Translations under genes and position numbers: made by a program
From: Cepaea nemoralis
Taxonomy: Eukaryota > Mollusca > Gastropoda > Stylommatophora > Helicidae
Assembly (NCBI GenBank): GCA_014155875.1
Contig: JACEFZ010011104.1
Span: 491,001 to 555,000, forward strand
Length of the DNA: 64,000 nt
Reading direction: 5' to 3'
The notes under the pieces: generated by a model
Databases searched by the model: none
Told to the model about the DNA's origin: nothing
Seen by the model: the letters and a program-made list of their open reading frames with translations, nothing else
Shown here: piece by piece, positions 11,420 to 46,743 of the stretch
Numbering within the stretch: the stretch's first letter is position 1
Layout of the letters: each line of letters begins with the position of its first letter

Positions 11420-11537
11420 CGTGGGTGTGCTATCAATTACAGGACGTCGCATTCAGACCCAACATTCGGTGGGGTGGTGTGTTTGCTGGGTAAGATTGCT
11501 GCTGTCTTATTGAACAAGTGGTAGACATGGCACGTAC

Positions 11538-11568
<31 letters not shown>

Positions 11569-13866: not shown

Positions 13867-14078
13867 TGGTGAAATACGGGGTGGTACATCGAAAACTCCA
13901 GACTGTCCGAAGACAGGATGTGCCCGACACTCAGATGATTGAGGCCTCGGGTATCTACAAGACTCAGATATCAACCCACCAAGCAGGATACCAGTTTTAC
14001 GATTACATGCTAAGTGACATGTACATACCAGGCTACCAACCAAAAAAAAACCCAACCAACTCAGACAATGGCGTGTAG
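13866..14078 (+). CDS. Small second gene of the element A pair, unknown function
   Basis: A 70-residue frame starting MVKYGVVHRK and overlapping the preceding stop by one base (TAATG). Termination-reinitiation coupling is therefore conceivable, which is unusual for a nuclear gene but common in compact viral gene blocks. The mirror copy (16971-17180, minus) keeps the frame and most residues, which suggests that both encoded a real product before the duplication. It may be the truncated start of a longer protein, since the palindrome's satellite begins soon afterwards. Not recognised. Confidence 0.5.
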   Translation: MVKYGVVHRKLQTVRRQDVPDTQMIEASGIYKTQISTHQAGYQFYDYMLSDMYIPGYQPKKNPTNSDNGV

Positions 14079-14359
14079 AAATCCAGAAACAATAGACAAT
14101 GTTTATAGCTTAGTATGTGAAAATAAAACGGTGTGATGATAGTATGTATACTATCTCATATCACATCATCCATTTCGTATAATGACATTATACATTTTTT
14201 ATTCTTGAAAAATGTACTGAAATACTGTAAAATGTACTTGTAATACTGTAAAATAAAACAGGCATATATTATAATTACGTCTTGGTTGTTGAATTTGTCC
14301 TAGTGTTTACGGTGTATGTAGTTGTCATGTGATGAGAGAATAATACATATTGGTGTAAA

Positions 14360-16700: not shown

Positions 16701-16970
16701 CATTCTCTCATCACATGACAACTACGTACACCGTAAACACTAGGAAAAAATTCAACAACCAAGACGTAAGTATAATATATGCCTTTTTTTTTTTTTTTTA
16801 CAGTATTTCAAATACATTTTACAGTATTTCAGTACATTTTTCAAGAATAAAAGATGTATAATGTCATTATACGAAATGGATGCTGTGATATGAGCTAGTA
16901 TACATACTATCATCACACCGTTTTATTTTCACATACTAAGCTATACACATTGTCTGTTGTTTCTGGATTT

Positions 16971-17180
16971 CTACACGCCATTGTCTAAGTAGGTTGATTT
17001 TTTCGGTTGGTAGCATGGTATGTACATGTCACTTAGTATGCAATCATAAAACTGGTCTCCTGCTTGGTGGGTTGATATCTGAGTCTTGTAGATACCCGAG
17101 GTTTCAATCATCTGAGTGTCGGTCACATCCTGTCTTCGGACAGTCTGGGGTTTTCGATGTACCACCCCGTATTTCACCAT
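16971..17180 (-). CDS. Mirror copy of the small second gene of element A
   Basis: A 69-residue minus-strand frame, near-identical to the one at 13866-14078 with scattered replacements and a one-residue difference near the C-terminus. It overlaps the end of the broken upstream gene in the same TAATG arrangement. Whether it is expressed is unknown. Confidence 0.45.
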   Translation of the reverse strand: MVKYGVVHRKPQTVRRQDVTDTQMIETSGIYKTQISTHQAGDQFYDCILSDMYIPCYQPKKSTYLDNGV

Positions 17181-17907
17181 TATTCTAGGTCTGATCTCTT
17201 CCTAACTCGAAAATGTAACGTCAGCACTGAAGTCCCGGTAGTGAATGCGTAATTTGTGCCCGTCTCAGTGGCTAGAAGTATTTCCACCGTGTCAAAGGAG
17301 TAACGATTAAGCGGTATGTATTGAGGTGTGTCGTAGGCGCGAAACACTGAGGTTGATCGCTGCTTCATGATAGGAACCGTCCTTAGTATTGGGACCATGA
17401 CGTCTCGAACTGGTCTTGTAGCAATGAGATCGCAATATACGTAGACATTTCGCAGGTCGTTATTCAGGTCTATCGACCCTTCACCTTTAATTGTAACTAG
17501 TATCTTTTGTAACTTCTCACTAAATGTAATAGTGGCCCCGGTTTCTAGTATTTTCATGATGACTTTCTTTGATGATTTGTCGAAATGGAATAGAACACGA
17601 GTTGATCGTCGACCTTCCGATCTTTCATTAGGCGATTCACTGCAGCTATAAATGCGTCTGGTGAACTGTACCTACCTGAGGGACACACCTGTCTTATCAC
17701 CCTACCATTGGGTGGGATGTATCTTAGCCATACTTCATTCTCTAACACATTACAGTAGTAGTTGGGGAATTGAATTTCGGCCAGACCCACTTCAAAATAT
17801 TGACTCACCTCTATAGTCTGTGGTAAGTTGACGAAATAGTGACCTGGTGAGTTCTTGGGAAATATGTTCGGCGAATCATTACTCGGTAATGTCAGGTAGA
17901 AGCTCAT
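17180..17907 (-). pseudogene. Mirror copy of the Polinton-type virion-associated gene, frameshifted
   Basis: The minus-strand frame from 17907 matches the intact left copy up to about residue 100. There a single T is missing compared with the left arm (about 17600), and the frame ends at 17554. The remainder is open from 17557 to 17180 in the other frame. The N-terminal and C-terminal portions are otherwise well conserved, so the break is probably young compared with the palindrome. Confidence 0.7.
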
Positions 17908-18719
17908 ATTTTAGGGTTTGGTAGCATGTAACCCAGACAGCTGCTTAGAAGAGCGATCCACAACTTTCCCTCGACTGCATCGACGCTGATTCAAGACAGA
18001 TTAAATATTGATATGCCAATGACTGTGTATATAACGACCAGTTGACAGAAGAAGACAATCTCTATTAGCGGCGACCACACATGCACCAGAACGAATTTCT
18101 TTCCCTCTTTGGGGTATTTTGTGTGTTAATTTCCACGCTGGTTTCTTCCATTACCACTGCTTTTGAACTACTGGGTTATTACACTCGATTCTCAGTTGTA
18201 TCATTAGTTGCTATTAGCAAATGCAAAAATCAGTGCTCGAGGCGCTCCTTGTGAAACATTGCCGGTACTAAGGAGACTACTTTCTGTATGCAGGGTTGAT
18301 GGATCAGCCATGTGCGTGTGTTGATTGGTGTTGCAGCCAGCAGAGCACATACTCCAGTTATATGTGCTTAGCACCATATATCTCTTTATTATACTAGTAT
18401 TGTTAGGTTAATTGTATGCCTACTTGGAGAAGCACACCGAAAATGTGAAAGATTTATCAAAACCTGAACGGTGTTCACTGAGACCGGGACATCTAGACGG
18501 CGAATGGTGTGTGTTATATACACGATATCTGCTGGTGAAGACTCCTGACTGAGGTGAATATTGTCTGGAAATGTCTGATCTGATGTATTCACATGGTAAG
18601 GGCGTGGTCTATCACAACGACACAGTGTAGTATCCTTCTTATCAACGTGTTCTAGCTGTAACATTACAGCTATACCCGGTTGTGACGTCATTTTTACCGG
18701 TTTTAGATAGTTATCATGT

Positions 18720-19790
18720 AGTCGCTAGCTTGACTGCCATATGTAAAAGAAATTCAGCCGTTCAGAAAGACAACGACAACCTTGCCCTGGAAGGTAGGGG
18801 TGACTGCAATGTACTGTAATAACTAGCGCACACGTTCACGCGCACGCATACGCATACACTCGACAGCACACACACACACACTCACGCATGTACATACACC
18901 TGCACGCCTACACGGAACAAATATCATGATAGCACAAGGACACCAATCAATGTTGCGGCTGTCTGCAACGTCCTGTAAATTCATTGCATAAACAATGTTG
19001 GGCCTGACTGCGACGTCCTGTAATAGATAGTTGTTAATACATCCTCTTCACACGCACATGACTTGGCTGGGGTTAATTGAAAATAACAATTGCAAACTTG
19101 TCCAGCACACACGAAACTCCCTAGAATGTTTAGGTTGACTGCGATGCCCTGTAATTTATAGCATACACACACACGCGCGCTCATGCACACACGCATGTAC
19201 ATACACACACGCGTGCTAGCGGGCACGACCTGACTGTCGTTCGTATATAATGACAATTGCAAAACTTGCCCCTGGAGGTCAGACACTCCGTATAATACTG
19301 AGGTTGACTGCTACACGTCCTATAATTGATAGCACACACACACACACTCGCGCGCGCGCGTACGTGCCATGAATACCGTTCGTTCAAAAAGACAGCAGCA
19401 ATCTTACATAGCAAACACACCACTTCACCGAATGTTGGGTCTGAAAGCGAAGTCCTGTAATTGATAGCACACCCGCGCGTGCGCACGCACAAACGCATGT
19501 ACATACATACACGCGCGCTAGCGCACACGACCTGACTGTCGTTCGTATATAATGATAATTGCAAAACTTGCCCCAGAGGTCAGACACTCCGTAGAATACT
19601 GAGGTTGACTGCGACATCCTGTAATTGATAGCACACACACACGCGTACGTGCCATGACTACCGTTCGTTCAATAAAATAGCAGCAATCTTACCCAGGAAA
19701 CACACATTACTCCATCGAATGTTGGGTCTGAATGCGACATCCTGTAATTTATAGCATATCCGCGCGCGCGAACGCACACACACACGCACA
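18720..19790 (-). repeat. CA-rich tandem modules, right arm
   Basis: Mirror of 11080-12290, with the same GACGTCCTGTAATTGATAGC phrase on the opposite strand and different lengths of the dinucleotide runs. Confidence 0.75.
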
Positions 19791-19810
19791 GACATATTTA
19801 GTATTATTTC

Positions 19811-19812
<2 letters not shown>

Positions 19813-19898
<86 letters not shown>
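19813..19898 (+). repeat. (GA)n microsatellite, right arm
   Basis: About 85 bases. It is the counterpart of the 165-base (CT)n tract in the left arm. Confidence 0.97.
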
Positions 19899-19902
<4 letters not shown>

Positions 19903-20703
19903 CAGCAAATAGAAAATACATATTTGTGTTGAATTCTTGTATGCCTGACCACTGCATATTTTCCACTCGCCTAGCCGTCACTGGTAATTACCTTCATGTT
20001 TTATCTACCGGTTATCAGTACACGCTGGCCATTGTATTTTTTTCTCGCGGGGCGTGTTCGGCTGGCCGCGGCTATTGTCACATCGCTCGGCTCGTGGTCG
20101 GTGAAGCGTTATGGTTGAGTGGTATCGGAAAATCTCGCGGTCGCTGGTCGTTTATTTCTCGCGGGGCGTGATGGGTTATTGTATGATCTTTACCTGGTGG
20201 CGCATGTAAGAGTTGGCGGTCAGGGGAGTTTAGTAAGGAAAACCGTAAAGTGGAGACAAGTGAAACGAATCAGCTCCCTTGGTTTATTTCTATTTATGTT
20301 TGTAAAAAAGGGCCGTTATTTGTGTTGTTTATTTACATATTTTAATGTATATCTCGGGAAGTTATGGTTTATTTTAAAGGAGGACTAGAGCTTTTTTTTT
20401 ATTGACGTACCTACTCGCCAATATACATACAAGAAATTTAGAGGGTTTAATTAAGTTTTGGAGTTAATTTTTAATAAAATTGATTGGATGGTTAGTATAT
20501 TTTCTAAACCAGATTTTCACCAAGCGCTTAAAGTTGATACATGGGGTCGGGACTTCTGCTGAAGCGTACAAAAGTTTTGTCATCAAAAATGGATCCTCGG
20601 GTTAGCTCGAGAGATGGACTAAATCATTTTCTGTCATATTTGACTTCGGTCTCCTCATCGAAGGGGATCGATATGACTGGGGTTCGATCACACCAGGTGA
20701 CCG

Positions 20704-20705
20704 CA

Positions 20706-20771
<66 letters not shown>

Positions 20772-20774
20772 ACT
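20704..20774 (+). repeat. (CA)n microsatellite, right arm
   Basis: About 70 bases of CA. The left arm has only about 12 bases of (GT)n at the mirror position (10067-10080). Confidence 0.95.
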
Positions 20775-21223
20775 GGGACTCGAACACAGTTGCCCAACAA
20801 CTATTTGGTCTACTTATATAAGTATTCCACATGACCAGGGCTTGTCTCGTTGTCCGCCCCGCCCGCCCCGCCCGCCCCACCACCGCCGCCTCCGCCCCGC
20901 CCCTAGACCGGAAGTGACAACCGGACGTGGTCACCCAGAACCAAGAAAATAACCACCATTTTCAAATATCTGGGTCATTTGGGGTCCTTCGCCGCCACCC
21001 CTCGGGACCGGAAGTAGTCATCAAGACAACCGGTAGTGGCAACCGGAAGTAGTCATCACGACAACCGGAAGTAGTCACCCAGGACCAAGAAAATACCCGC
21101 CATTTTCAAAATATTTAGGTCGTAAAATATAACGATTCAAGATGGCCGGATAACCCCGTAAAGAACGATGTATCAGGGGTTTGAAACCACATTTGAGGTG
21201 TAGTTACAACATCCCATACTACT

Positions 21224-22636
21224 CTTGGCCAAACCACTTGATCTTCTGTCTTTCGATAAATGTGGCACAGAGTGTTAATCCTACTGTCTGTCTAATAACA
21301 GCTTGTTTTACTCGGTCTCGGATTGTTACGTTGGCAGCTCTCCGCAGGCATCTTATCTCAGAGGTGTTGATTTTGCGAACGTGTGATTTGGATAAAGTCC
21401 AAGTTTGAGATTAGTGGCATAGGATTTGTGTGAATATGCTATTTATTATCTTTCGTTTTACGGACATGAGTATATTTGGATGTTTCAATATGGATGATAG
21501 TTGATATGTAAGTGCATTAGATTTTTGACATCTGATTTCTATTTCTCTGCCCAATCTATCATTTTCAGTGATCATACTTCCAAGATATTTGGGTTATTTA
21601 ACTTGATTCAGAGATGTGCTTTTTATCTGCATACTTAGTGGGCCCGGCGATCTGCTAACTTGCATTATTTAGGTTGCATTGGCTGCATTTATACTCATAT
21701 TGTATATGCTGCATGTTGAACTCAGATTATTAATATGATTTTGCAGTCTGCTCTCATAGCTATAAAACAGGCACTGATCGTCTGCAAATAGAAGTTTTAT
21801 TTATTTTTTGTGAATCAGGTGTTTAATCTAAACTTAAGAGTTCTAAATTTTCTGAATCTGTTCTGTCAAGGCTTGCTTCTTTGGATATTCTGTCCATATA
21901 GATATTAAATTGCAGAGGAGAGAGCACACACCCCTGTCTCAATCATGTATTGACTGTGAACATATCTGATATACATTCTTGTGTTCTTACTGCCCTTCGG
22001 CTCGAGTGGTACATAGCTACGATGTTTTCTAGCAATTGTCCTTGTATCCCGTAGTCTTCACGGATGGTCCATAATTTGTATCTGTCTACTCTATCGAAAG
22101 CCTTTTCCTGATCTACAAACACAATATTCTGCTGGTTACTATATTCGACGGTATGAAGTTTGTTTCTTGTTGTCCATGGCTTTTAGGCACAAAAGTGAGG
22201 TTTTCTATGTTATTATATGATGGTTAAAAAGTTGTTGAAAGTATTCTGCCCAACTACTAGTCTTTGTTTTGGATTAAATAATGGTATACCTCTTTTGCTG
22301 TTTATGGCGGTGGTTGCACATGTTTGTAGCATTCATCTCTCTCATTTCATTGACACGTTCATGAATTTCTTTTGGGTAGTCTTTGCTATGGGTCACCATC
22401 TGTTCACCGTATATTCTCCAGGATTCATCTTTGGATGCTCTAATTGTTCGTTTGGCATTTTGTCGTGCTATTATATAAGTAATATAGTCTTGTTCACATT
22501 TAGTTGTGATCCATTTTTAAACGCTACTTTCTTTTTGAATACGCTATCTTTAATTTCGTTGTTCGAACAAAGTTGTTCTTAATCTTTTGTCCTGTCCTAC
22601 TTTCTTTATTCCACATTTATTTTCCTGTGTGTCGAG
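21224..22636 (-). mobile_element. LINE interrupted by elements A and B (segment 2 of 3)
   Basis: Minus-strand reverse transcriptase remnant lying exactly between the two palindromes. Readable blocks include QEKAFDRVDRYKLW (about 22060-22110), RQGCVLSPLQFNIYMDRI (about 21900-21950), LLFADDQCLFYSYE (about 21770-21800), and the C-terminal VTIRDRVKQAVIRQT followed by KTEDQV (about 21230-21340). Stops are frequent. The left boundary is the second CTTGGC copy, and the right boundary is the GTCGAG copy at 22631-22636. Confidence 0.8.
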
Positions 22637-23045
22637 AGTAGTATATAGGTACAAAAGGTTTACCGTTTTTGTGGATCTTATATAAATCAACCATTTATCG
22701 ATCCTGATCCACAAAGGGCGATAACTCATTTTTCTTAAAGTAGGCGTGGTCAGAGTAGGTGTTGCGAAGTGCTCATCAGAGTGGGTGTGGTCTAATGACT
22801 CATCAGAGTAGGTATGTGTAGTGTATAACATAAAAAATACAACATGAAACACTCAAAATAACAAACGAGTCAAGTAAGGTATATAATAATTTTATTAAAC
22901 CATGTATAGACAAACAATACAATGCATATTAAATAAGTAGTGGCATAGTTGACACATTATCATTGTGTACCTACCTTTTTATATACAGAGATGATAACGA
23001 ATCGCGATGTTGCTGATACGTATACACAGCAGAGTATTGTGTATT

Positions 23046-24150
23046 GAATCCTATATTGGTTCACCCACTCGCCTCTTGGGTGGTGAGAACATTTAAGTAT
23101 GTGTCCTTGTTTAGATGAGTGTTGTGGTTTTTGGTCAGACCTTTGGTACTGATTTTATCATAATCTCCGACACAAATATACGTCTTACTACATAACGAGA
23201 CCATCCCCTCCCCGTCGTACTCTAGTTTAAAAAGCCCGGGGGTTCTCTTTCATAGGCTTTGATATCCACGCAGGCCTGACAGGTAGTGGTAGTAGTTCTA
23301 TGAACAGGGCAGGTTTCAGACGGGAACCACTGATTGTATACTCTGTCATATTCTTCTCGTAGCTGTGGTCTAACTACTTCAGAGAGTGAGTCAGCGCTAA
23401 GGGCCAAATATAGAGAGTCAGTGTCCATTTCGGTTAGTTGGTAGTCTTCTTTAGAGATACGTTTGTCAAAAAAGTCATAGTAGAAAGCTAGCATGCGCAA
23501 CTTGGCATACTGGTAGACAAAGAACCCAATCTGTAGAGGTAGATCCCAGACAGTTTTCTTCTTTAACATTTCAACTTCGAAGAGATCATCTGTAATACCA
23601 GTCATGCTGTTGAACCTGGGGTTATTGAGTAGTTTGATAGTGTCTTTTCCCTGACAGTAGGAGACAGCGGTATGTTTGGTTTTATTGGTTAACGTTTTGC
23701 CGTAAGCGGCGTTACCTAACAATTTCATAGTTCGGCTGTAATAGACACAGCAGGATTTTTCTCCCCTTGGCGACGGGCATTAGACACTGTTTCCTCAAAT
23801 TGTTTAAAACAACTAACCGGTCGATATTCTATTGTCTGGTAGATGTGGGTAACCACCAATCAATGTGCTAGATACCACTTTAAAAGAGGGGTGGCTAAAA
23901 AAATCTCCCCGAAATAACTACCGATCAAAGTCCGTCGTGCGGTACTCAGTAGTTTATTTTTTATGGCGTATTCTTTCATAAACTCCCCAATGTCGTCTCT
24001 CGACACTTCCGTGTTCGTAAAAATAGGGGGCATCTCGGCAAATGATTCTTGTAAATCAGCCGGGGTCTCAATATTGCATTCAACCAACCCGAAAAATGTA
24101 TCACTTTTTACAGCGTCAATTATCTGGTTTTCACTAAAAGAACCCCAAGG
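23046..24150 (-). pseudogene. Protein-primed type B DNA polymerase, C-terminal two-thirds (left arm copy)
   Basis: Would copy the element using a protein primer. The minus-strand frames 24087-23860 and 23728-23222 contain the motif A region (FGMVECNIETPADL...EMPPIF), motif B (KLLGNAAYGKT) and catalytic motif C (EMDTDSLYLAL). The 3'-exonuclease and N-terminal parts are missing. There is an in-frame stop or frame change at about 23850-23730. The frame ends at 23222. The remaining C-terminus is readable in the minus-one frame, with one further stop near 23065. The mirror copy is at 34480-35695. Confidence 0.85.
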
Positions 24151-24730
24151 AATTTGTGAAGGTGGAAATGTTTCCCGTAAGAAACACTTTAATGTATTTG
24201 CAATTCAACTCAACTATATATCTGATTGACAGATTTGCCTGTTGTACTCTATTTTACTAAACTTATCGACATGGTAAAATGTACCACGTTTGATCACGCC
24301 CACCGACATGGCACATGATGATTGAAGAATTACTTTCGTACACAAACCCCCCCGCCCCCCCCCCTATCTAATTTATGTAAAATTAATAACTAAGCTGGTA
24401 GTGTTTTGTTATGTGTTTTCGTTACAAAACTGATATAGCTGAGTGAGAAGTCTATCGACAAAGACAGTTGAATTCATACAAGAGTCAATATCGCAATTAT
24501 AGACATATTTCAAGCGAACGAAAGAAGAAGAAGAATCGACACGGCACATGATAATGATATACCCAGAGCGGTTACCACAATGATACATAATATATTCTTT
24601 TTGCGGCGTTATAAAGTGTTTATATTTAAAATCTTCTTAGGTGTGGTGTGTAAACGAAAGAGATACCAAAAAGAAAATAAATAAACAAAAATACACAACG
24701 GTATGGTATTTTCGTGCGAACGATGTATGT

Positions 24731-24812
24731 AAAAAAAAAATTCTCACTTTGAGGGTCTAACCACGTCCCCCCGGGGACGAATCAGGTGTTCTATTAACTA
24801 CGCTAATAATTC
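24731..24812 (-). repeat. tRNA-derived (Pol III promoter-like) module, left arm
   Basis: Read on the minus strand it has an A-box-like TTAGCGTAGTTAA at about 24795-24807 and a degenerate B box (GGTTAGACCC) at about 24752-24761, followed by a T-run in transcript orientation. The right-arm counterpart keeps a better B box. It is not a foldable functional tRNA. Confidence 0.55.
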
Positions 24813-25173
24813 CGGTAACGGTGCTCTTTCAACCCAAAAGTATACCAGTAACCTTGCAACTGTGACTGATGTCGGAGATGGTAAACACGAAACAAAAGAA
24901 TTATAACTATTAAAAAAACATATTTCTAGAACAGACAGATTTATAAACATATACGGATTAGACAAATATATAAATTACGCCCTCATTATGTTTAAACCCC
25001 GATAAAATATGAAAGTGTCTATACGGACTCAAGTCCGTATAAACTACTGTTTCTATTCGGACTCCACTCCGTTTTTTCCGGTCCGTGATTTGCCTATTCA
25101 CGTGACTTAACGTATGTGACGTCATCGGGACATGAGCGTGGCTATGTTATATACTTTTGTTGATTCAAAATCG

Positions 25174-25275
25174 TATCCTCAATAGCACAGTGGTAAGTGT
25201 CTCTGCCTGATAAGCGGGAGCTGTTGGTTCGATTCCCTGCTGGACGCTTTATTTTATTTTTTTATTTTTTTTTAT
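25174..25275 (+). repeat. tRNA-derived module inside the Mutator-like element
   Basis: A-box-like TAGCACAGTGG (25183-25193) and a perfect B box GGTTCGATTCC (25225-25235). A loop CTGATAA would give a GAT anticodon, and a T-rich tract follows. The acceptor ends do not pair, and the anticodon stem needs a bulge, so it is a tRNA relic or SINE head, not a functional tRNA. Confidence 0.6.
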
Positions 25276-25740
25276 TTTTCAGCAATTAATTGGGTGCAAG
25301 CGACTTATTAATAAAAAAAATATTACGAACTATGATTATGAACAGATGTTTTGTCACGTATATTATCTTATTTATATTATATAAAAGTTATCTTTGTTAG
25401 CTTCGTTATCTATTTATCTCCTCTCTCTTTTCAACCTGCTTCACATATACCAGGTATTCCTGCACTTTATGTGCGTAGCATTTCCTTGTTTATTTGTTAA
25501 TTCATCAGGCCAGTAAGTCGGAAGCCTGGTGTTTGAATTGCCTAATCATGTCTTTCTGAGGCGACGCATATTACTGTCAGCTTGGACCGGAATTATGAGG
25601 CCAGGGTTGTCACTTTTTTTTTGACCAAAAGTATCTAGAAACGGCCCAAACAACATCCATAAATATCTAGATTTCGTTGGAAAGTATCTAGGAAAAATAT
25701 CCAGATTTAGAAAGTAAGAAATTACATATGTATTGATGTG

Positions 25741-25985
25741 ACTGCCTCTCTCCCTGGCGAAAAGTTTACGGCTGTCGCCGTTATCCCGTATATTCTCGTG
25801 AGTAATGCAGCTGCGCCCGAACCGACAGCGGTTCGAGCCGCTCAGGTAACTTACAGGGGTATGTGAGCCGGTCGCTCAGAAACCAATGGCAAACTACTGA
25901 GCGTAATCTTGCCTTGTACATCAACAGCAGCTGAAAAATTCTGATGTTGACTGCATCATCCTGTAAGGGATATGCAACATTAAAA
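25741..25985 (+). repeat. tRNA-derived SINE, copy 1
   Basis: A tRNA-like head with B box GGTTCGAGCCG (about 25829) is followed by the family body GAAACCAATGGCAAACTACTGAGCGTAATC, and the tail GATGTTGACTGCATCATCCTGTAAGGGATATGCAA. The same body is found at 30893-31130 and 32085-32322. Confidence 0.8.
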
Positions 25986-26005
25986 AGAAAATTGATGTGA
26001 CTTAC

Positions 26006-26461
26006 CTATAGAATCATGTCCTCATCTTCACTGATGCCTGTCTCACAAGATGCACATAGCTTGGATGATGAAGTTGAAGCTTCACATTCAAAATGACTCT
26101 GGTGTACTTTAGCTGTTCCAATTTCTTTTATTATATGATCAGGAAGCTGATAAGTTGAACAGCATTTTCAAGCTCTCATCAGGCCAAATCTTATTGTCAA
26201 CATAGCATTTAAGAGATCAAGTTTCATCCTGTTTCTTAGTTTACATTTTGTATAATTCACAGTACTGAAAACTCTTTCCGCATCAGCATTTGAATGGGGT
26301 AGTATCATGGCAGACATCGCACATTCAAAGAGCTCACGGAATGGACTGTTACCTGAGACATCTTTAAATTGTCTTACTTCACTCCAAAAAGCTTCAGTTT
26401 CTGTTTTGTTTGTCCAGTCAACCAAATTTATTTTTGTTAACTAATATTCTGCTTCCGCCAC
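26006..26461 (-). pseudogene. hAT transposase, C-terminal dimerisation region
   Basis: The minus-strand frame (26425-26168, extending to a stop at 26006 after an in-frame TGA) contains HSNADAERVFSTVNYTKCK, the hallmark of the hAT C-terminal dimerisation domain. A second stop (TAG) lies close to the LINE insertion near 26443. Upstream residues continue on the far side of the LINE at 28354. Confidence 0.88.
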
Positions 26462-26475
26462 ACTAGCCCCTAAAA

Positions 26476-28286
26476 CCTGGACCAATGCAGCAGTCTTTGC
26501 CCATGATGTCTATGAAGGTTTCCACGCAGGCACTGAAACCGTTGCTGCAGCGATTGATCTTGAGGACGCATACAACAGAGTACCACTGGATTTTTTAATG
26601 TTTCAGCTTCTTGAACTAAACGTAAGTCCATTCCTCCTTAGTTGGATCGCTGCAGCCCTCTTCCAACGGAAAGTAGTTTTTAGATGTGGCAGTTGGACTT
26701 CGGAACCAACAACAATATATCCTGGCCTACCACAGGGATCACCATTATCTCCGGTACTGTTCAACGCCTACACAGTGAGAATCACCAGTGAGCAGATCAC
26801 TGGACCTGGCAGGACATTGTCATATGCCGATGATGTTTTAGTGTATCGTCAGGGTAAGGATAGAGAGGAGGTTGCTGTGGAACTACAAACCGAACTCAAT
26901 CGCGTAAGTACTTGGTGTGATAAAGCTGGGGCAATGGTCAACCCAACAAAGGCAACAGTGACTTGGTTCTCGCTGAATAATCATATTGTCAACAATCCAA
27001 CACCAACTGTAATGCTGTGTTCAGAGACGGTGGAAAGAACGCAGGCAATGAATTACCTGGGGATACGGTTTGATCGAAGCCTTGCTTATAATGTGCACAT
27101 AGACCAGGTGATAACAAAGGCCAAGCGGGGTTTGGCAGCGATGCGGGTGATAGCGGCAGCAAACTGTGAGCAGCGCCATCTATGTCTTCTGTAATAGGGG
27201 CTGGTCATGTCTGTTTTGGAGTATGCAATGGCAATCCTGACTGTCAGCCATAAGCAGATAGAAAGGATGGAAAGGATACAGAATGAAGCTATGCGCATTA
27301 TTCTTGGATGTACAAGAGATACAGCATGCAAGGCGATGCGCTACCTTCTTGATTTTCCAACCATTGAAGAGAGAATGCAAGTTTGCAGGGCACGCGCCTA
27401 CCTCAGAATTAACGCAAACACACAGCATCCACTGCATAGTGAAATTAGGAAGGTGAAGGGCAGCAGGTTAAAAAGAGGACGGTCGTGGATGGGTCAAGCC
27501 GAAGACATTCTTCAACAGGTGTGTTCACTTGAGGACTTAGAACCTGGCGAGGAGTGGGTGCAAGTGCCAACAGACTTCTGCACATCCTTTTCAGTTTGCA
27601 TCCAACTAGATAGAAAATGCAGACAAGAAAATCCGGCTGCTGTTGAGGCTGAAGTACAAGCGTTGATTTTCGAGAATTCGCTAGACAGTGACGCGGTCAT
27701 CTACACAGATGGATCGGTCGTCCGACATGTGAGAAGCTCATGGGCCTTTACAGCTCGGGCCGGAGGGAGAATTGTGAAGGAGGACTCTGGTGCTTTCACT
27801 GAAACCACAAGTAGCCTGACCATGGAAGTCATGGCAGTAAGTAAAGCAATAACATGGCTCGAGACACAGACATTCACTAGGGCTTGTTTCCTTAGCGACT
27901 CAATGAACATGATCAAGAGGATAGAGGAGGGGTCGATCCGAAGAGAATGGTTGCTGCCTCTGAAGCGGTCTCAGCTGGCAAAGATTAGTTTCATCAATGA
28001 GCGGGCTGACAAGCTCGCAGGTGAGGCTACTGTGGAGGGCGGACGCGCCATGGACCAGACTGACATTCTGAATGCTCTACGAGAAGTGAGACTTTTGCAA
28101 GAACCAAGTGATGACTGTGAATCTACAACAATGGCCAGACTGCGAGAGCAGCAAATTAAAAGAGGGGTGGCCAAGCAAGAACACTACGCAGGAAGCCAAA
28201 GGAGATTGATAAACCAACACAGAACTGGCGTCGTTAGCCGCTACACGCTGCGGGATTTGCTGAGGAGGGGATCCGAGCACTTATGA
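26476..28286 (+). pseudogene. LINE reverse transcriptase and RNase H
   Basis: The first frame (to 27194) carries GLPQGSPLSPVLFNAY and catalytic YADDVLVYR. Two tandem stops (TAA TAG, about 27192) separate it from the frame at 27207-28286. That frame continues the thumb (IQNEAMRIILGC) and adds an RNase H domain with YTDGSV, the MEVMAVSKA Glu block and FLSDSMNM. A small deletion at about 27994 removes the stretch before NERADKL that carries the usual HxG block; copy 2 still has it (FVPGHAGVQGHERA). RNase H with this RT points to the I/R1/LOA group. Confidence 0.85.
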
Positions 28287-28339
28287 ACTGAATGGTCCGA
28301 TGTGCAACGAGGATGATCTGTCGACTAACTAACTAACTA
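26476..28339 (+). mobile_element. I-group LINE with RNase H, 5'-truncated, inserted in hAT
   Basis: Flanked by the 14-bp duplication ACTAGCCCCTAAAA (26462-26475 and 28340-28353), and ends in a (ACTA)n tail at 28322-28339. Its 5' end is truncated within the reverse transcriptase. A degenerate second copy of the family lies at 56768-59525 (minus). Confidence 0.92.
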
Positions 28340-28353
28340 ACTAGCCCCTAAAA

Positions 28354-28800
28354 ATTTAATAACTTGATAATATTTAGGTATGTCCTTTACTGGCTGAGGT
28401 ATGTTGTTAATAGAAAAGAGTGAAATATTTGTCAATACATCTAAATTTTCAGGAAGTCTCTGCTTCAGTTGATCGAATAATGAGACAAGAAAATCTAGAC
28501 AGCGCTTTCTTAAGTTGTTCTCTTCATTTTCTGTTAACAGTCCTTTTGTTTTTAAACCATCAATTTTTGATTCGATTTGGTATCGCAGGTACGGCTTGGG
28601 AGCCAAATAGCTCTCTATAGTGCAAGTGAACAAGTCCGCTTTACAAGTTGGCAATATAAGTCTTTTACCAATTGAGTGAAATAGCAAAGTGAGGTCGTCA
28701 AGTAATTTAACTTTATCAACATTTTGAGATTCAAATAGTTTATTAACTTTTTGCACTTCACTTAAAATGGGTTGTGAAAAGAGAAACCCGAGATTTCCGT
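28354..28800 (-). pseudogene. hAT transposase, middle region
   Basis: The minus-strand frame 28756-28337 reads QKVNKLFESQNVDKVKLLDD and continues to YYQVIKFLGAS at the LINE junction, a typical segment before the hAT dimerisation domain. The part before about 28800 (BED finger and catalytic N-terminal half) is not recognisable, so the element is internally deleted or strongly decayed there. Confidence 0.75.
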
Positions 28801-29510
28801 AGTCATTTACAGGTCCGTACGTGAGGTGAGTATGCAGTTTTTTTCTCTATAAACAGTTTTTCTATTAAACATTTTCTTCGACTAACATTCTTTTCAATTA
28901 ACATTTTGTCAATTCTCATTTTCTCTTCATTGCTTCCATTTTTCCATGCATTTGTTCCTCTCGTCCTGTCATCACCTTCTAATGTAGTCACATGAGTTCT
29001 CCTTGACTGTATGTTGTGTTTGTGAATGTGTTTGTTTGCTGATGAAGGCTAACCGCCGCAACGTTCTGTATGTGTCGTAACTCTGTTATGTAAAGCTGCA
29101 CTACTTTGTGTCATTTTATATTGTTTAAACTTTCACAGCTTTACCGCAGTTCCACCAAATTTTATGCATACATTCCATATAGTATTTCAGCTGTGTAGCA
29201 CTTTTCATTGTGTCTTGTTATTCCTCATGCTCCAGGAGCTAAATACAGACAAATACCATTGCCCTGGGTACGTCAGTTATATAAACCCCTGGGGTGCTAC
29301 AGGCCAGGAAAAGATATCATAATTTACGCGCGTCCAGACCGAACATAAAATGGGTAAATGACACCGAAAGAAAAGTAAAATCTAGAAAGTATTCAAAATA
29401 TCCGACTCCAAATGAAAAGTATCTAGAATTGCAACCAGCATCCAAACGTCAGAAAACGGTATCCAGATGCCGGCAAAAACCTCTAGATCTGGATATAAAA
29501 TATCTAGAAT
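28801..29510. other. Remaining hAT interior and subterminal region
   Basis: No transposase coding is recognised. 29376-29510 contains repeated (T)ATCTAGA-type motifs also found at 25631-25705, which are candidate transposase-binding sites. Confidence 0.45.
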
Positions 29511-30439
29511 GGCAACTATGATGAGGACTCCGCTCCGTATAAACTACTCTGTCTATTCGGACTCAAGTCCGTATAAACTCTCCCATAAAATATTGTTTTC
29601 AGTTGTATAAAAAGTAACAGAATTTATGATATGTAAAACTGTGCTATGCCTGCTTGGGGAAAATTATGTTTTAGTGAAAAATAACAATCAGTTCCCGAAA
29701 TGAAGACTGTAATATTAAACAAAATTAAGTTTCAATTATTTCAAAACGCAGCATAACATAATAAAGCATACATATATATTTTAAAAATCTATGTCTGTAG
29801 ACAAAATCGGAACAGGCAGGCCTGGTATGACGCCTTAAATGCGATATAAAATAACTTTTACAGTTAAAAAACGTATTGAAACTTATAGTGAAGTGAAAGA
29901 TTATGATTTCGTTGATGTAAAACACCAATAATGATGGTGTTTTGTGAAAAGTAGCAAGAAGTATTGATATTATAAACTCAGCATGTTGCACATTTGTTGC
30001 TAATTTCGTTCCGTAGCGGATTTGTCCGGGGTTTGTTGAGTAAAAGTTTTCTCAGATGTCCGCGCACGTTAACAAAATAGCGGAACGGTGTTCATTTACC
30101 AGCCCAGACGAACTGAGGTGAAACAAGTGTAAGTTTCGTTATGTGTAACCACTTACACGATAATCAGATTTAATTTTGATATCATCAGAATAAATCTAAA
30201 TTTCACCATATTCTGAATATTAACAGAACCAATGGTTATATTAAAGAACGACTTTCTTTTCACTCTGTACAAGGCCACACGAACATTCTGCCTCTCGTTT
30301 CTATCGCGTACCCGACACGCCACACATAGCTGTTTGTTTGTTTTTTTTTGTTTTTTTTAATTTACCTTTCACAAACGGACACGTCTACAACACATGATGC
30401 ATTCATCATCAAATTGTGTAAGCATTCATGGCGCTGTCT

Positions 30440-30840
30440 TTGGTGTTCTGAAATCAACTCTGCTGACACTGTTGCAATCCATCCACCCTAATTTCTTGTC
30501 TCGGTCTGTAACTGTCTTTTTTCCCCTCGAACTTTCCAGTTGTCACGATGTTCATGCGTCTCTTACATGACTAAAGACAGCTGTTTGTCTCTTTTCTAGT
30601 GTCATCTAGTTGTTACTCTGGCAGGGAATTAGCCTTACAAACCACACCTGCTTCTAATTTCTTCTTAATTTTGTTCATTCGAAGATTCACTCCCATACAC
30701 CAAAACTGGTTCTATATACCACTCTCTTTCTTACATTACTTTTTCATTTTCTGAAATGTGGTTTTTGGTTGTCCTATTCTGTTCATTAATCTCTGTTGTA
30801 CATCTTCCATCTGATAAATGCCCCTAGGTAATTTATCCAC
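30440..30840 (-). pseudogene. Decayed LINE 3' fragment, left inner arm
   Basis: The minus-strand reading, better seen in the mirror copy at 32345-32810, has weak RT C-terminal blocks (MEDAQQRLMNE, VYGSE-like, SRGKRQQQ). It is heavily mutated. Confidence 0.4.
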
Positions 30841-30892
30841 TTGGTTCAGAATGTTTCTATGTCACATTTTTGTGTCACCATTTTCTTTGATG

Positions 30893-31130
30893 CTGGCCTA
30901 GAGGTTAGCGAATTTTCTCCGTAATCTCGTATACTATCGTAAGTAACGTGACGATTGCAAGAATCAGGACTGGTTCGAATATCGTCGGTAACTTATGAGG
31001 GTTGTTTGAGCCGGCCGCTCAGAAAGCAATGGCAAACTACTGAGCGTAATCTGGCCAAGAAATCAACAAGCGGCTGAAAGATGATGTTGACAGCGATGTC
31101 ATGTAAAGGATATGCAAAACATTTATTTAG
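30893..31130 (+). repeat. tRNA-derived SINE, copy 2 (left inner arm)
   Basis: A-box-like TGGCCTAGAGGTTAGCGA and B-box GGTTCGAATAT at about 30973. The body CAGAAAGCAATGGCAAACTA and tail TCATGTAAAGGATATGCAAA follow. It was present before the palindrome formed, because it is mirrored at 32085-32322. Confidence 0.82.
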
Positions 31131-31143
31131 TTTCTTTGATATC

Positions 31144-32067
31144 ACCATTATTACTATTTTCTTGATAGAGAGTCCATTGCACTCTATATTACTACAATGT
31201 CCAACAATTGTTGTAGATCTGTTGGATTATCTACCCCCAATACTGTGTCATTATATCGCTTATATCTTCCGATTAGTATTCGTGGGATCTTTCTGGATAA
31301 GGCTTTCAATAGTATAAGGCATGTCAACAAATTAGATATGTTTTTAGATCTACAAATTGGTGGGAAAAACCTTAGACTTGTAAAAAACATATATAGAAAA
31401 CAAAACTGTCCTATGGATTGATAATGAAATAGGCCACGATCTGCCTATTAAGATAGACAGGGATGTGTAATGTTTTTTCCCTGTACATCAGAAATATAGA
31501 AGATATGAAAAGACTCATCATTGAAGGATGTAACATCAATAATAATTGATATGCGGTCTTGATTGTAGACAATGAACAGGACCTGCAAAATTTACTACAT
31601 GGAATTGTTGCGAACAACTAGGATTAGAACTAAAAAGACACAGATTATTGTCATCACTAGGAAAAAGGAAACAGCACAAGTAAATGTGGGTATTCTTAAA
31701 CAGTCACTGTCCAGAAGGAAAGTAATGGCAAACTGCTTTCGGCAAACCTTGCCAAGAAAGCCATAACAACCATGGAGGTGGTGGAAATTTTCGAATATCT
31801 TGGTTGCGAACAACGGTGACACAATGAAAGAAATTAAACGATGACTGTTTTAATCTGTGACCACACTGATGATCTATCATCGCAGATTACAGACCATAAC
31901 CAACAACAATATCTCGAGTGTTGTTACACTTCATCCACCTGCTTCCATGGCTTCACGTAGTCCTGATTCGTCTATACGGGTACCCCACCCAAGAGTGCCT
32001 CGTAAACTAACAGAAGAAAGGAGGATACCCTGCAATCCAGACTAACTACCATACACACGTAAAATGT
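31144..32067 (+). pseudogene. Loop of the element B palindrome: decayed RTE-like LINE fragment
   Basis: The only unmirrored part of element B. Plus-strand frames read LDKAFNSIRHVNKLDMFLDL (about 31285-31350) and CCEQLGLELKKTQIIVITRK (about 31605-31670). This is the same family as the LINE at 1060-7330 (compare YTKAFDRVRHVSMVDMLADL and QLGLELNCKKTQVMVVTRKK). Many stops. Confidence 0.7.
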
Positions 32068-32084
32068 TATATCAAAGAAAGTAA

Positions 32085-32322
32085 ATAAATGTTTTGCATA
32101 TCCTTTACAGGACATCGCTGTCAACATCATCTTTCAGCCGCTTGTTGATTTCTTGGCCAGATTACGCTCAGTAGTTTTCCATTGCTTTCTGAGCGTCCGG
32201 CTCAAACAACCCTAATAATTTACCGACGCGATTCGAACCAATGCTGATTCTTGCAGTCGGCACGTTACTTACGAGAGTATACGAGATTACGGAGAAAATT
32301 CGCTAACCTCTAGGCCAGCATC
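32085..32322 (-). repeat. tRNA-derived SINE, copy 3 (right arm)
   Basis: Mirror of copy 2. It reads from the tRNA-like head at about 32322 down to the GGATATGCAAA tail at about 32095. Confidence 0.82.
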
Positions 32323-33825
32323 AAAGAAAATGGTGACACCAAAATGTGACATAGAAACATTCTGAACCAAGTGGTTAAATTACCTAGGGGCATTTATCAG
32401 ATGGAAGATGCACAACAGAGATTAATGAACGAATAGGACAACCAAAAACCACATTTCTGAAAATGAAAAAGTAATGTTAGAAAGAGAGTGGTATATAGAA
32501 CCAGTTTTGGTGTATGGGAGTGAATCTTCGAATGAACAAACTTAAGAAGAAATTAGAAGCAGGTGTGGTTTGTAAGGCTAATTCCCTGCCAGAGTAACAA
32601 CTAGATGACACTAGAAAAGAGACAAATATCTGTCTTTAGTCATGTAAGAGACGCATGAACATCGTGACAACTGGAAAGTTCGAGGGGGAAAAGACAGTAA
32701 CAGACCGAGACAAGAACCGAGACTGCGTTGGATGGATTGCAACAGTGTCAGCAGAGTTGATTTCAGAACACCAAAGACAGCGCCATAAATGCCTACACCA
32801 TTTGATGATGAATGCATCATGTGTTGTAGACGTGTCCGTTTGTGAAAGGTAAATTTAAAATAAAAGAAAAATTAAAAAAAAAACAGCTACGTGTGGCGTG
32901 TCGGGTACGCGATAGAAACGAGAGGCAGAATGTTCGTGTGGCCTTGTACAGAGTGAAAAGAAAGTCGTTCTTTAATATAACCATTGGTTCTGTTAATATT
33001 CAGAATATGGTGAAATTTAGATTTATTCTGATGATATCAAAATTAAATCTGATTATCGTGTAAGTGGTTACACATAACGAAACTTACACTTGTTTCACCT
33101 CAGTTCGTCTGGGCTGGTAAATGAACACCGTTCCGCTATTTTGTTAACGTTTGCGGACATCCGAGAAAACGTCTACTCAACAAACCCCGGACAAATCCGC
33201 TACGGAACGAAATTAGCAACAAATGTGCAACGTGCTGAGTTTATAATATCAATGCCAGTTGCTTATATTTCACAAAACACCATCATCATTGGTGTTTTAT
33301 ATCAACGAAATCATAATCTCTTTCACTTCACTATAAGTTTTAATACTTTTTTTAAACTGTAAAAGTTATTTTATTTCGCATTTAAGGCGTCATATGAGGC
33401 CTGCCTGTTCCAATTTTGTCTACAGACATAGATTTTTAAAATATGTATGTATGCTTTATTATGATATACTGCGTTTTGAAATAATTGAAACTTAATATTG
33501 TTTTATATTACAGTCTTCATTTCGGGAACTGATTGTTATTTTGCACTAAAACATAATTTTCCCCAAGCAGGCATAGCACATTTTTACATATAATAAATCC
33601 TGTTACTTTTTATACAACTGAAAACAATATTTTATTGGGGTTTAAACATAATGAGGGCGTAATTTATATATTTGTCTAATCCGTATATGTTTATAAATCT
33701 GTCTGTTTTAGAAATATGTTTTGTTAATAGTTATAATTCTTTTGTTTCATGTTTACCATCTCCGACATCAGTCACAGTTGCAAGGTTACTGCTATACTTT
33801 TAGGTTGAAAGAGCACCGTTACCGG

Positions 33826-33908
33826 AATTATTAGCGTAGTTGATAGAACACTTGATTCGTGTCCGGGGGAACGTGGTTCGATCCTCAAAGTGAGAATTTT
33901 TTTTTTTT
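33826..33908 (+). repeat. tRNA-derived module, right arm
   Basis: A-box TTAGCGTAGTTGA (33831-33843), B box GGTTCGATCC (33875-33884), and a T-run (33897-33908) that could terminate Pol III. It is mirrored at 24731-24812, where the B box is damaged. Confidence 0.6.
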
Positions 33909-34479
33909 AAATGTAATCCTTCGCACGAAAATACCATACCGTTGTGTACTTTTGTTTATTTATTTTCTTTTTGGTATCTCTTTCGTTTACACACCACACC
34001 TAAGAAGATGTTAAATATAAACACTTTATAACGCCGCAAAAAGAATATATTATGTATCATTGTGGTAACCGCTCTGGGTATATCATTATCATGTGCCGTG
34101 TCGATTCTTCTTCTTCTTTCGTTCGCTTGAAATATGTCTATAATTGCGATATTGTCTCTTGTATGAATTTAGCTGTCTTTGTCGATAGACTTCTCACTCA
34201 GCTATATCAGTTTGTAACGAAAACACATAACAAAACACTACCAGCTTAGTTATTAATTTTACATAAATTAGATGGGTTTGTGTACGAAAGTATTTCTTCA
34301 ATCATCATGTGCCATGTCGGTGGGCGTGATCAAACGTGGTACATTTTACCATGTCGATAAGTTTAGTAAAATAGAGTACAACAGGCAAATCTGTCAATCA
34401 GATATATAGTTGAGTTGAATTGCAAATACATTAAAGTGTTTCTTACGGGAAACATTTCCACCTTCACAACTTCCTTGGG

Positions 34480-35695
34480 GTTCTTTGAGTGAAAACCTGA
34501 TAATTGACGCTGTAAAAAGTGATACATTTTTCGGGTTGGTTGAATGCGATATTGAGACCCCGGCTGATTTATAAGAATCATTTGCCGAGATCCCCCCTAT
34601 TTTTAAGAACACGGAAGTGTCGAGAGACGACATTGGGGAGTTTATGAAAGAATACGCCATAAGAAATAAACTACTGAGTACCCCACGACGGACTTTGATC
34701 GGTAGTTATTTCGGGAATATTTTATTAGCCACCCCTCTTTTAAAGTGGTATCTAGCTCATTGATTGGTGGTTACCCACATCTACCAGACAATAGAATATC
34801 GACCGGTTAGTTGTTTTACACAATTTGGGGAAACAGTGTCTAATGCCCGTCGCCAAGGGGACAAAAATCCTGCTGTGTCTATTACAGCCGACACTATGAA
34901 ATTGTTAGGTAACGCCGCTTACCGCAAAACGTTAACCAATAAAACCAAACATACCGATGTCTCCTACTGTCAGGGAAAAAACACTATCAAACTACTCAAT
35001 AATCCCAGGTTCAAAAGCATGACTGGTATTACAGATGATCTATTCGAAGTTGAAATGTTAAAGAAGAAAACTGTCTGGGATCTACCTCTACAGATTGGGT
35101 TCTTTGTCTACCAGTATGCCAAGTTGCGCATGCTAGCTTTCTACTATGACTTTCTTGACAAATTTATCTCTAAAGAAGACAACCAACTAACCGAAATGGA
35201 CACTGACTCTCTATATTTGGCCCTTAGCGCTGACTCACTCTCTGAAGTATTTAGACCACACTTACGAGAAGAATATGACCGAGTATACAATCAGTGGTTC
35301 CTGTCTGAAACCTGCCCTGTTCATAGAACTACTACCACTACCTGTCAGGCCTGTGTGGATATCAAAGCCTATGAAAGAGAACCCCCGGGATTTTTAAACT
35401 AGAGTACGACGGGGAGGGGATGGTCTCGTTATCTAGTAAGACGTATATTTGTGTCGGTGATTATGATAAAATCAGTACCAAAGGTCTGACCAGAAACCAC
35501 AGCACTCATCTAAACAAGGACACATTCTTGAATGTTCTCACCACCCAAGAGGCGGGTGGGGGAACCAATATAGGATTCAAGACACACGACTCTGCTGTGT
35601 ATACATATCAGCAACATCGCGATTCGTTATCATCTCTGTATATAAAAAGGCAGGTACACAATGATAATGTGTCAACTATGCCGCTACTTATTTAA
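34480..35695 (+). pseudogene. Protein-primed type B DNA polymerase, C-terminal two-thirds (right arm copy)
   Basis: Mirror of the left copy. The upstream part (34480-34760) is degraded, with the motif A region readable only in pieces. The frame 34764-35402 carries motif B (with YRKT for YGKT), WDLPLQIGFFVYQYAKLRM and motif C EMDTDSLYLAL. A UAG at 35400 follows directly after TTTAAAC. The C-terminal end of the family continues open in the minus-one frame to a stop at 35695, ending STMPLLI, which matches the usual Polinton PolB terminus. The Gly-to-Arg change in motif B would probably disable this copy. Confidence 0.82.
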
Positions 35696-35987
35696 TATGC
35701 ATTGTATTGTTTGTCTATACATGGTTTAATAAAACTAGTATATACCTTACTTGACTCGTTTGTTATTTTGAGTGTTTCATGTTGTATTTTGTATGTTATA
35801 CACTACACATACCTACTCTGATGAGTCACTAGACAACACCCACTCTGATGAGTCACTTCGCAACACCTACTCTGACCACGCCTACTTTAAAAAAATGAGT
35901 TATCGCACTTTGTGGATCAGGATCGATAAATGGTTGATTTATTTAAGATCCACAAAAACGGTCATCCTTTTGTACCTATATACTACT

Positions 35988-36560
35988 GTCGAGCATGGTA
36001 GCCTTGAAATTTGTCGATTCTTTATCTATGCTTAAGTAGACATCAGGGATGTTCTTATGTAGTTTTATTGATGTCTTGATTGAATTCGTCTTTACCCGTA
36101 TTTTCATGAAGCCTCCTATAATTGATGACATGTGTTGTTACCTTTTGTTTCTTATTTTCCTCTATATTGAAATCTTTTTTTTTTATTATGACTGTTTTGT
36201 GATTAGTATCAACATCTGTATTTAGGGACGCCTTTGAATCCAATAGTAGTATTCTGTCTGTTTTCCTAAGTAGAATAAAGTCAAACTGAGATGCTTGATG
36301 TATATCATTCCATATATACCAGGTTTTTGTGTGGCTACGAAGATGTTGGGGAAAAAAATATTTGCTATTATTAGTCCGTGTTCGGAGCATATGTTGAGTA
36401 GGTGTTGACCATTGCTATTACATGCAGCCTCTATGTCGCTGAATGGTCCCATGCATTCATCCCAAGGTGTTCATTGTGTGCCTTTTCGCCCGATGAAATC
36501 ACCCATCACAATACGTTCAATGGCATAGTTACATACTAAAATGGTTCTTCGCAGTTCTAG
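35988..36560 (-). mobile_element. LINE interrupted by elements A and B (segment 1 of 3, endonuclease)
   Basis: The 5' part of the LINE that holds both palindromes. Minus-strand frames read a damaged MGDF-like block (about 36500), then CSEHGLIIANIFFPNI, HTKTWYIWNDIHQASQFDF and ILLRKTDRILLLDSK, the C-terminal half of an APE-type endonuclease. It then runs into the RT region, which resumes at 22636. The first six bases are the second GTCGAG copy. Confidence 0.75.
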
Positions 36561-44030: not shown

Positions 44031-46004
<1,974 letters not shown>

Positions 46005-46023
46005 TTACTTGGGGGGGGGGGGG

Positions 46024-46505: not shown

Positions 46506-46743
46506 ATATCATCTTAGTGTGGATCCAGGTAGGGTGAATGTGGATAGGAGTTAAGACACTTATCTTGCCTGTTCACACTTCACACGTCTACATAGATCCT
46601 TGGTCCTAATTCTACTCTTCTTATTGAGAGATTGTTTTTTGTTGTGCTGCGTGGTGTTAAATATATAGATAAATTAACTATTGAATATCTATATATTGTT
46701 TAGAGAAATTTACACTCAACCTGCCGACTCACCTTTCCGAAAT

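What the first reader, a model, noticed from the sequence alone, without database searches (positions are those of the whole stretch)
22637..35987. Element B: a second palindromic Polinton-type element carrying DNA polymerase fragments
Seen: target duplication GTCGAG, ends AGTAGTATATAGG, arms of about 3.9 kb, a 0.93-kb loop, and outward-facing PolB 3' portions in each arm. The mirrored SINE and LINE pieces show that the palindrome formed from a long stretch that already contained host repeats. An unrelated loop separates the arms, as expected if the fold-back point lay at a break.
Basis: partly seen in the sequence, partly recalled or inferred. Interest (0 to 1): 0.88.

Follow-up and report, generated by a model that had tools for sequence, protein, structure and literature searches.

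The report
Mirror-image Polinton insertion carrying host DNA
A stretch of animal DNA holds the tail end of a virus-like jumping gene, together with neighbouring DNA, copied into a near-perfect mirror image bounded by the insertion marks of that jumping-gene family, which suggests that broken copies can fold back, gain a second working end and jump again.

Summary
Element B lies at 22637-35987 between 6-bp target duplications GTCGAG and has ends AGTAGT//ACTACT, the published Maverick/Polinton end motif. Its two arms of about 3.9 kb are 96.2% identical (149 mismatches in 3913 ungapped columns) around an unpaired 904-bp loop. Each arm runs from a ~293-bp end, through the last ~425 codons of a Polinton-type DNA polymerase read outward, into about 2.4 kb of other DNA with LINE-like stretches and a SINE-like repeat that has its own target duplication. 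The polymerase stops at the same point in both arms and shares two disabling lesions, so it was a decayed remnant before it was mirrored. Divergence is even along the arm. A 4.6-kb hAT-like insertion, with a nested LINE, entered the left arm later. The window holds exactly two TSD-flanked AGTAGT//ACTACT intervals, and both are palindromes; the other (element A) carries a penton-like gene. Best reading: a one-ended remnant folded back, gained a second end and was integrated by a helper's integrase. In-place copying from the terminal repeat is the main rival, disfavoured but not excluded. The host genome could not be searched (18 identical unanswered calls), so parent locus, sister copies and empty site are untested.

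The parts
22631..22636 (.). Target-site duplication GTCGAG, left copy
22637..22929 (+). Left terminal segment (end AGTAGTATATAGG) with ~27-bp subterminal repeats at 22750-22813
22930..24204 (-). Left-arm PolB C-terminal fragment (~425 codons, pseudogene), C-terminus towards the element end
   Evidence: tblastn with 120 relatives; relatives
24205..25001 (.). Left arm, inner DNA without recognised Polinton genes (first part)
   Evidence: PolB homology ends at 24204; composition
25010..29584 (.). Later insertion in the left arm only: hAT-like element, TSD ATAAAATA (8-9 bp), empty site in the right arm
26473..28346 (+). LINE (reverse transcriptase, RNase H) nested in the hAT-like insertion, TSD CTAGCCCCTAAAA; borders approximate
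29593..31154 (.). Left arm, inner DNA (second part), including the mirrored LINE-like stretch
30881..31140 (+). SINE-like repeat with target duplication TTTCTTTGAT, present before mirroring
   Evidence: both arms; another copy of the repeat at 25775-25977
31155..32058 (+). Unpaired loop (904 bp) with LINE-like peptides
32059..34418 (.). Right arm, inner DNA with the mirrored SINE-like repeat and LINE-like stretch
34419..35695 (+). Right-arm PolB C-terminal fragment (pseudogene), C-terminus towards the element end
35696..35987 (-). Right terminal segment, end ACTACT, subterminal repeats at 35801-35875
35988..35993 (.). Target-site duplication GTCGAG, right copy

Best explanation
Element B is a non-autonomous, palindromic derivative of a Polinton/Maverick. 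Steps: (1) a Polinton insertion decayed until one end (terminal segment plus the C-terminal part of PolB) lay next to other DNA that held a SINE-like and a LINE-like repeat [truncation, lesions and SINE before mirroring: shown; that this is ordinary host DNA: inferred from its repeats]. (2) A single strand carrying that end and about 4.8 kb inward folded back near its broken 3' end and was copied back to the terminal repeat, making an inverted duplication with a 0.9-kb unpaired loop [anatomy shown; process inferred]. The likeliest setting is replication from the terminal repeat by a helper Polinton's protein-primed polymerase, since a hairpin with one such end becomes a linear DNA with two identical ends after one more round [inferred, less sure]. 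(3) An integrase supplied in trans joined the two identical ends to a new site, making the 6-bp duplication GTCGAG [TSD shown; in trans inferred, no integrase was recognised in the element]. (4) The arms then diverged to 3.8% and the left arm received an hAT-like insertion with a nested LINE [shown].
For: Ends AGTAGT//ACTACT plus exact 6-bp TSD at the outer tips of the palindrome, matching the motif in PMC8097293 (passages and section 7). PolB homology stops at the same point in both arms, 24204 / 34419. Two lesions are shared by both arms, an in-frame TGA and a frameshift; one private lesion was found in each arm. SINE-like repeat with the same TSD in both arms. Even divergence over four segments: 9/298, 47/1269, 53/1383, 40/963, chi-square p = 0.84, as expected if the whole arm was copied in one event. 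Loop of 904 bp lies in the 766-70,466 bp range of fold-back spacers (PMC3907307, passages). A second palindrome with the same kind of ends and no blastn similarity to B lies 1.4 kb away, so the process recurs. Adeno-associated virus forms snap-back genomes from either end (PMC8235507, passages).
Against: No single-arm parent, sister copy or empty site was seen, because the genome search did not complete (18 calls). No clear inverted microhomology could be named at the loop borders, while 13 of 21 junctions in PMC3907307 had 2-8 bp. The 6-bp TSD would also be left by an older ordinary insertion that was later remodelled in place. Protein-primed snap-back has no direct evidence here; host repair could have made the fold-back. 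PolB is identified from relatives: the window piece itself matches no Pfam polymerase model.
Confidence: 0.62

Rival explanations
1. In-place remodelling: an ordinary Polinton inserted at GTCGAG long ago. A break inside it let the left terminal repeat invade the right one, and break-induced copying replaced the left part by an inverted copy of the right part. No transposition of the palindrome is needed; the TSD is that of the first insertion.
For: Explains outer TSD, identical ends, loop and single-event copying. The shared PolB lesions show that the source was already old.
Against: The outer part of the left repeat would then be older than the mirror and more diverged from the right one. The outer 293 columns have 9 mismatches; 22.7 are expected if decay before mirroring lasted as long as decay since, and 34.1 if twice as long (2 shared lesions against 1 private each), P = 7e-4 and 1e-7. 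Not excluded if the switch lay in the outer ~50-100 columns (3 in 46; 4 in 100, P = 0.11 and 0.007) or if gene conversion evened the ends.
Confidence: 0.22
2. A variant of the best reading, counted apart: chromosomal fold-back by host repair at a break beside a one-ended remnant made the palindrome, and a helper later mobilised it like any two-ended unit; the element's own replication took no part in the fold-back.
For: Fold-back inverted duplications with spacers are reported in human genomes (PMC3907307). More than half of the mirrored stretch holds no recognised Polinton gene.
Against: Two palindromes with Polinton ends and no blastn similarity to each other lie within 26.4 kb, and both of the window's two TSD-flanked AGTAGT//ACTACT intervals are palindromes, which points to something about these elements. 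Two are too few to exclude chance.
Confidence: 0.12
3. Two separate Polinton remnants inserted head to head by chance.
For: Two PolB pieces and two ends are present.
Against: No TSD or end motif at the loop borders; same truncation, two shared lesions, same SINE-like repeat with the same TSD.
Confidence: 0.02
4. Assembly or sequencing fold-back artefact.
For: Artificial hairpin reads can give inverted duplications (recalled).
Against: Arms differ at 149 of 3913 columns and by 15 gap events; only the left arm has the 4.6-kb insertion.
Confidence: 0.02

Closest known systems
Polinton/Maverick (vertebrate set of PMC8097293)
   Same: (AGT)2//(ACT)2 ends, 6-bp TSD, PolB of the Polinton kind
   Different: No full gene set and no integrase recognised; PolB piece at both ends; mirrored arms of 3.9 kb against reported TIRs of 46-1447 bp; about 60% of each arm holds no recognised Polinton gene
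Adeno-associated virus snap-back (defective) genomes, PMC8235507
   Same: One genome end plus adjoining sequence mirrored, in the asymmetric kind around a loop, from either end of the genome; needs a helper
   Different: AAV replicates from hairpin ends, not by protein priming (recalled); here the product sits in a chromosome with a TSD and holds other DNA
Fold-back inverted duplications with a single-copy spacer, PMC3907307
   Same: Two inverted arms around a unique loop; 904 bp is within the reported 766-70,466 bp
   Different: Those are large chromosomal rearrangements with no transposon end at their borders that I saw mentioned; here both arms end exactly at a transposon end with a TSD
Element A of this window (9621-21223)
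   Same: Palindrome, AGTAGT//ACTACT ends, 6-bp TSD CTTGGC
   Different: No blastn similarity to B; carries a penton-like gene instead of PolB; arms 93.4% identical; tandem-repeat centre

Membership tests
Polinton/Maverick | (AGT)2//(ACT)2 or related 6-bp end motif | tested here: met
   motif from PMC8097293
Polinton/Maverick | 6-bp target-site duplication | tested here: met
   GTCGAG both sides
[quoted passage not shown]
   Fragment only: 400 relatives with E <= 1e-3 among 468 candidates (120 listed), three with an organism name called DNA-directed DNA polymerase; PF03175 in 6 of 18 aligned members, not in the window piece itself; no significant solved structure. Terminal-protein part absent, so protein priming is inferred from the family
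Polinton/Maverick | RVE integrase gene | tested here: not met
   No integrase domain by Pfam in the pieces scanned: 4 PolB pieces, 4 loop pieces, 10 inner right-arm pieces; a few matches below the curated cut-offs were taken as chance. Terminal segments and the shortest pieces were not scanned
Polinton/Maverick | Capsid, ATPase, protease genes; about 13-25 kb | tested here: not met
   None recognised in the same pieces of element B. Filed as a non-autonomous derivative, not a full member
Snap-back (defective) replicon | One end mirrored around a loop | tested here: met
Snap-back (defective) replicon | Formed during element replication and multiplied by a helper | not testable with these tools
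   needs extrachromosomal DNA and sister copies; genome search unanswered
hAT transposon (25010-29584 insertion) | hAT transposase and 8-bp TSD | tested here: inconclusive
   Dimer_Tnp_hAT 22.0 bits against cut-off 21.4 in one of two pieces; TSD 8 or 9 bp

The most novel reading that the evidence does not exclude
Palindromic 'snap-back' Polintons are a recurrent class of mobile satellites: any surviving Polinton end, even a dead one beside host DNA, can be folded into a two-ended replicon by a helper's protein-primed polymerase and re-integrated, so that these elements carry off host DNA and make defective, possibly interfering, copies as some DNA viruses do.
Probability: 0.33. Interest if true: 0.82.

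Novelty: new variant of a known kind. Interest (0 to 1): 0.6.

Why it matters
Polintons are thought to copy themselves as linear DNA with a protein-primed polymerase, a step inferred from their genes. Mirror-image copies of one end, inserted with the family's own target duplication, would be a fossil trace of that step, and a test of it: snap-back products are expected from terminal replication and hard to get from cut-and-paste. They would also show how a dead element regains mobility and how kilobases of other DNA get packed between two working ends. Two cases within 26.4 kb suggest that such copies may be common in this genome and could be missed where they are annotated only as long inverted repeats.

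Tried and rejected
Two separate insertions: rejected (no TSD or end at the loop borders, shared cut, lesions and SINE-like repeat). Artefact: rejected (3.8% divergence, one-sided insertion). A short inverted repeat at the loop borders as the fold-back point: no convincing one. Whether the loop is colinear with the right-arm LINE-like stretch, which would make the left arm the copied one: order and strand agree with peptides of what may be another copy at 5239-1468 (minus strand), but both parts seem to hold the same short motif (my reading), so left open. A tRNA-like piece near 24741 (my reading) was not called by ARAGORN (0 in the window).

Led nowhere: viral contigs with the PolB piece, the penton-like ORF and PolB alignment A1 (3, 12 and 33 pattern stretches, 0 relatives each) and with the first 20 bases of the end (0). 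PHROGs: 0 families for 2 proteins. Pfam: nothing for the penton-like ORF or for 4 of its relatives. Solved structures by sequence: only insignificant matches.

Papers: 7 searches. Five named Polinton or Maverick among their terms and listed 25 of 44 papers, 2 of 2 (22), 25 of 47 (23), 9 of 9 (28) and 20 of 203 (52); no listed title or abstract start describes a palindromic Polinton. The library lacks most subscription papers, so this is weak evidence of absence. Of the papers named I saw passages (PMC6431247, PMC2836005, PMC4028283, PMC3907307, PMC8235507) and, for PMC8097293, passages and section 7; of the rest the search listing only.
Full report
WHAT IS THERE. Between 22637 and 35987 lies one unit bounded by GTCGAG on both sides (22631-22636 and 35988-35993) and beginning and ending with AGTAGTATATAGG and its reverse complement. 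The unit is a palindrome: left arm 22637-25001 plus 29593-31154, loop 31155-32058, right arm 32059-35987. Aligned as (left pieces 22637-25014 and 29575-31154), the arms share 3913 ungapped columns with 149 mismatches (96.2% identity; 61 transitions, 88 transversions) and 15 gap events, one of them the edge of the later insertion. In the window, 20 AGTAGT and 30 ACTACT sites give only two pairs more than 200 bp apart with matching 6-bp flanks, elements A and B; 100 resampled windows gave a mean of 0.02 such pairs, at most one.

WHAT THE ARMS ARE MADE OF. From each tip: a 293-bp (right: 292-bp) terminal segment with ~27-bp subterminal repeats, a short core of which occurs three times at each end; a PolB C-terminal fragment whose C-terminus faces the tip; then about 2.4 kb of other DNA. 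The right-arm PolB piece (212 aa between stops) has 400 relatives with E <= 1e-3 among 468 candidates, of which 120 were listed; the top one is 62% identical over 88% of the piece, and entries from two sea slugs and a sea cucumber bear the name DNA-directed DNA polymerase. Pfam's DNA_pol_B_2 matches 6 of 18 aligned members but not the window piece itself, whose only match was an unrelated model below its cut-off; no solved structure matches significantly. With 120 relatives as tblastn queries, homology stops at 24204 on the left and 34419 on the right, although four of the relatives that reach this point run on for 7 to 41 further residues. Vertebrate Mavericks mostly point both gene modules inward, with the cane toad as an outward case (PMC8097293 section 7); here PolB points outward.

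ORDER OF EVENTS. The PolB fragments share an in-frame TGA and a frameshift; each arm also has one lesion of its own, a missing base on the left and a stop on the right. The SINE-like repeat at 30881-31140 has the target duplication TTTCTTTGAT in both arms. So truncation, decay and SINE insertion came before mirroring. Divergence between arms is the same in four segments (9/298, 47/1269, 53/1383, 40/963; p = 0.84) and also by content (terminal 9/292, PolB 47/1275, inner DNA 77/2074, SINE and rest 16/272; p = 0.29), as expected for one copying event; the last 12 columns at the loop have 3 mismatches, so the exact arm edge is uncertain. After mirroring, the left arm received 25010-29584, bounded by ATAAAATA with the empty site in the right arm, holding a weak hAT domain match and a nested LINE with duplication CTAGCCCCTAAAA.

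THE LOOP. It has LINE-like peptides resembling a stretch at about 4954-5239 on the other strand; the right arm has further LINE-like peptides resembling 1468-1632. That these are LINE pieces is my reading: Pfam found no reverse transcriptase in the 4 loop pieces scanned. No target duplication or Polinton end marks the loop borders: the longest shared direct word nearby is 6 bp, inside the arms.

HOST. Not named. The only organism name among the 39 relatives of the nested LINE is the land snail Bradybaena similaris (50% identity), and PolB relatives include sea slugs but also echinoderms and an annelid-like worm; a mollusc is likely, not shown.

ELEMENT A. The neighbouring unit 9621-21223 has TSD CTTGGC and ends AGTAGT//ACTACT, arms 93.4% identical over 5309 columns, and a 243-aa ORF at 13135-13866 with 299 relatives among 496 candidates. 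Pfam and sequence search of solved structures found nothing for it. Its predicted fold (pLDDT 90.9) matches viral proteins (56 with E <= 0.001) that include an uncharacterised Tetraselmis virus protein (top, TM 0.72 by query), adintovirus proteins, virophage and mavirus minor capsid proteins and an adenovirus penton, several with low TM-scores. Polinton penton genes are described in PMC4028283 (passages). A's left arm and B's arm share no blastn similarity. Two different Polinton lineages have thus given palindromes 1.4 kb apart, one holding a capsid gene and one PolB.

HOW IT MOST LIKELY AROSE. A decayed Polinton end next to other DNA was copied into a fold-back with a 0.9-kb loop and then integrated by a helper's integrase. 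Spacers of 766-70,466 bp (median 3,428) occur in human fold-back duplications (21 sequenced junctions, PMC3907307), and adeno-associated virus makes snap-back genomes from either end, the asymmetric ones with a single-stranded loop (PMC8235507). Copying from the terminal repeat by a protein-primed polymerase gives the simplest route from a hairpin to a linear molecule with two identical ends, but nothing here shows which polymerase did it.

THE MAIN RIVAL. If the palindrome was made in place, starting from the left terminal repeat of an old insertion, the outer part of that repeat should be more diverged than the rest. The outer 293 columns have 9 mismatches against 22.7 or 34.1 expected under one or two units of earlier decay (P = 7e-4 and 1e-7); the first 46 columns (3 mismatches) and, at one unit, the first 100 (4; P = 0.11) do not discriminate. 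The units rest on few lesions, so this is a lean, not a proof.

NOVELTY. Ends, TSD and polymerase are those of Polintons; the mirrored anatomy with other DNA inside is not described in the titles and abstract starts listed, and exceeds the TIR lengths of PMC8097293 (46-1447 bp). I call it a new variant of a known kind.

LIMITS. The own-genome search did not complete (18 calls), so copy number, parent locus and empty site are unknown. One window is the whole sample.

Noticed in passing
9621-21223: Element A: a second palindrome with Polinton ends, TSD CTTGGC, a penton-like gene in each arm (open frame on the left, broken on the right) and mirrored simple and ~249-bp tandem repeats.
   Followed up: partly
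2259-4319 (+): Long open frame (686 aa, no stop) that looks to me like a pogo/Tigger-type transposase; not searched.
   Followed up: no
44039-52918: Direct repeats of about 1.7 kb (91.7% identical) around gag/pol-like frames (47813-48952, 49710-50651), by my reading perhaps a Ty3/gypsy-like LTR element; no clear short duplication seen at the ends.
   Followed up: partly
56778-59319 (-) and 26473-28346 (+): Pieces of the same RT/RNase H LINE in two places, about 91% identical.
   Followed up: partly
46034-46500: Tandem array with a period of about 32 bp.
   Followed up: no
22750-22813 and 35801-35875: ~27-bp repeats just inside each end of element B, possible binding sites for the integrase or replication proteins.
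   Followed up: partly
31718-31762: A stretch inside the loop that resembles the core of the arm's SINE-like repeat (by eye); the SINE may derive from this LINE.
   Followed up: no
6235-7047 (-): Open frame that looks to me like a LINE endonuclease domain, upstream of the loop-like stretch at 4954-5239 on the same strand.
   Followed up: no
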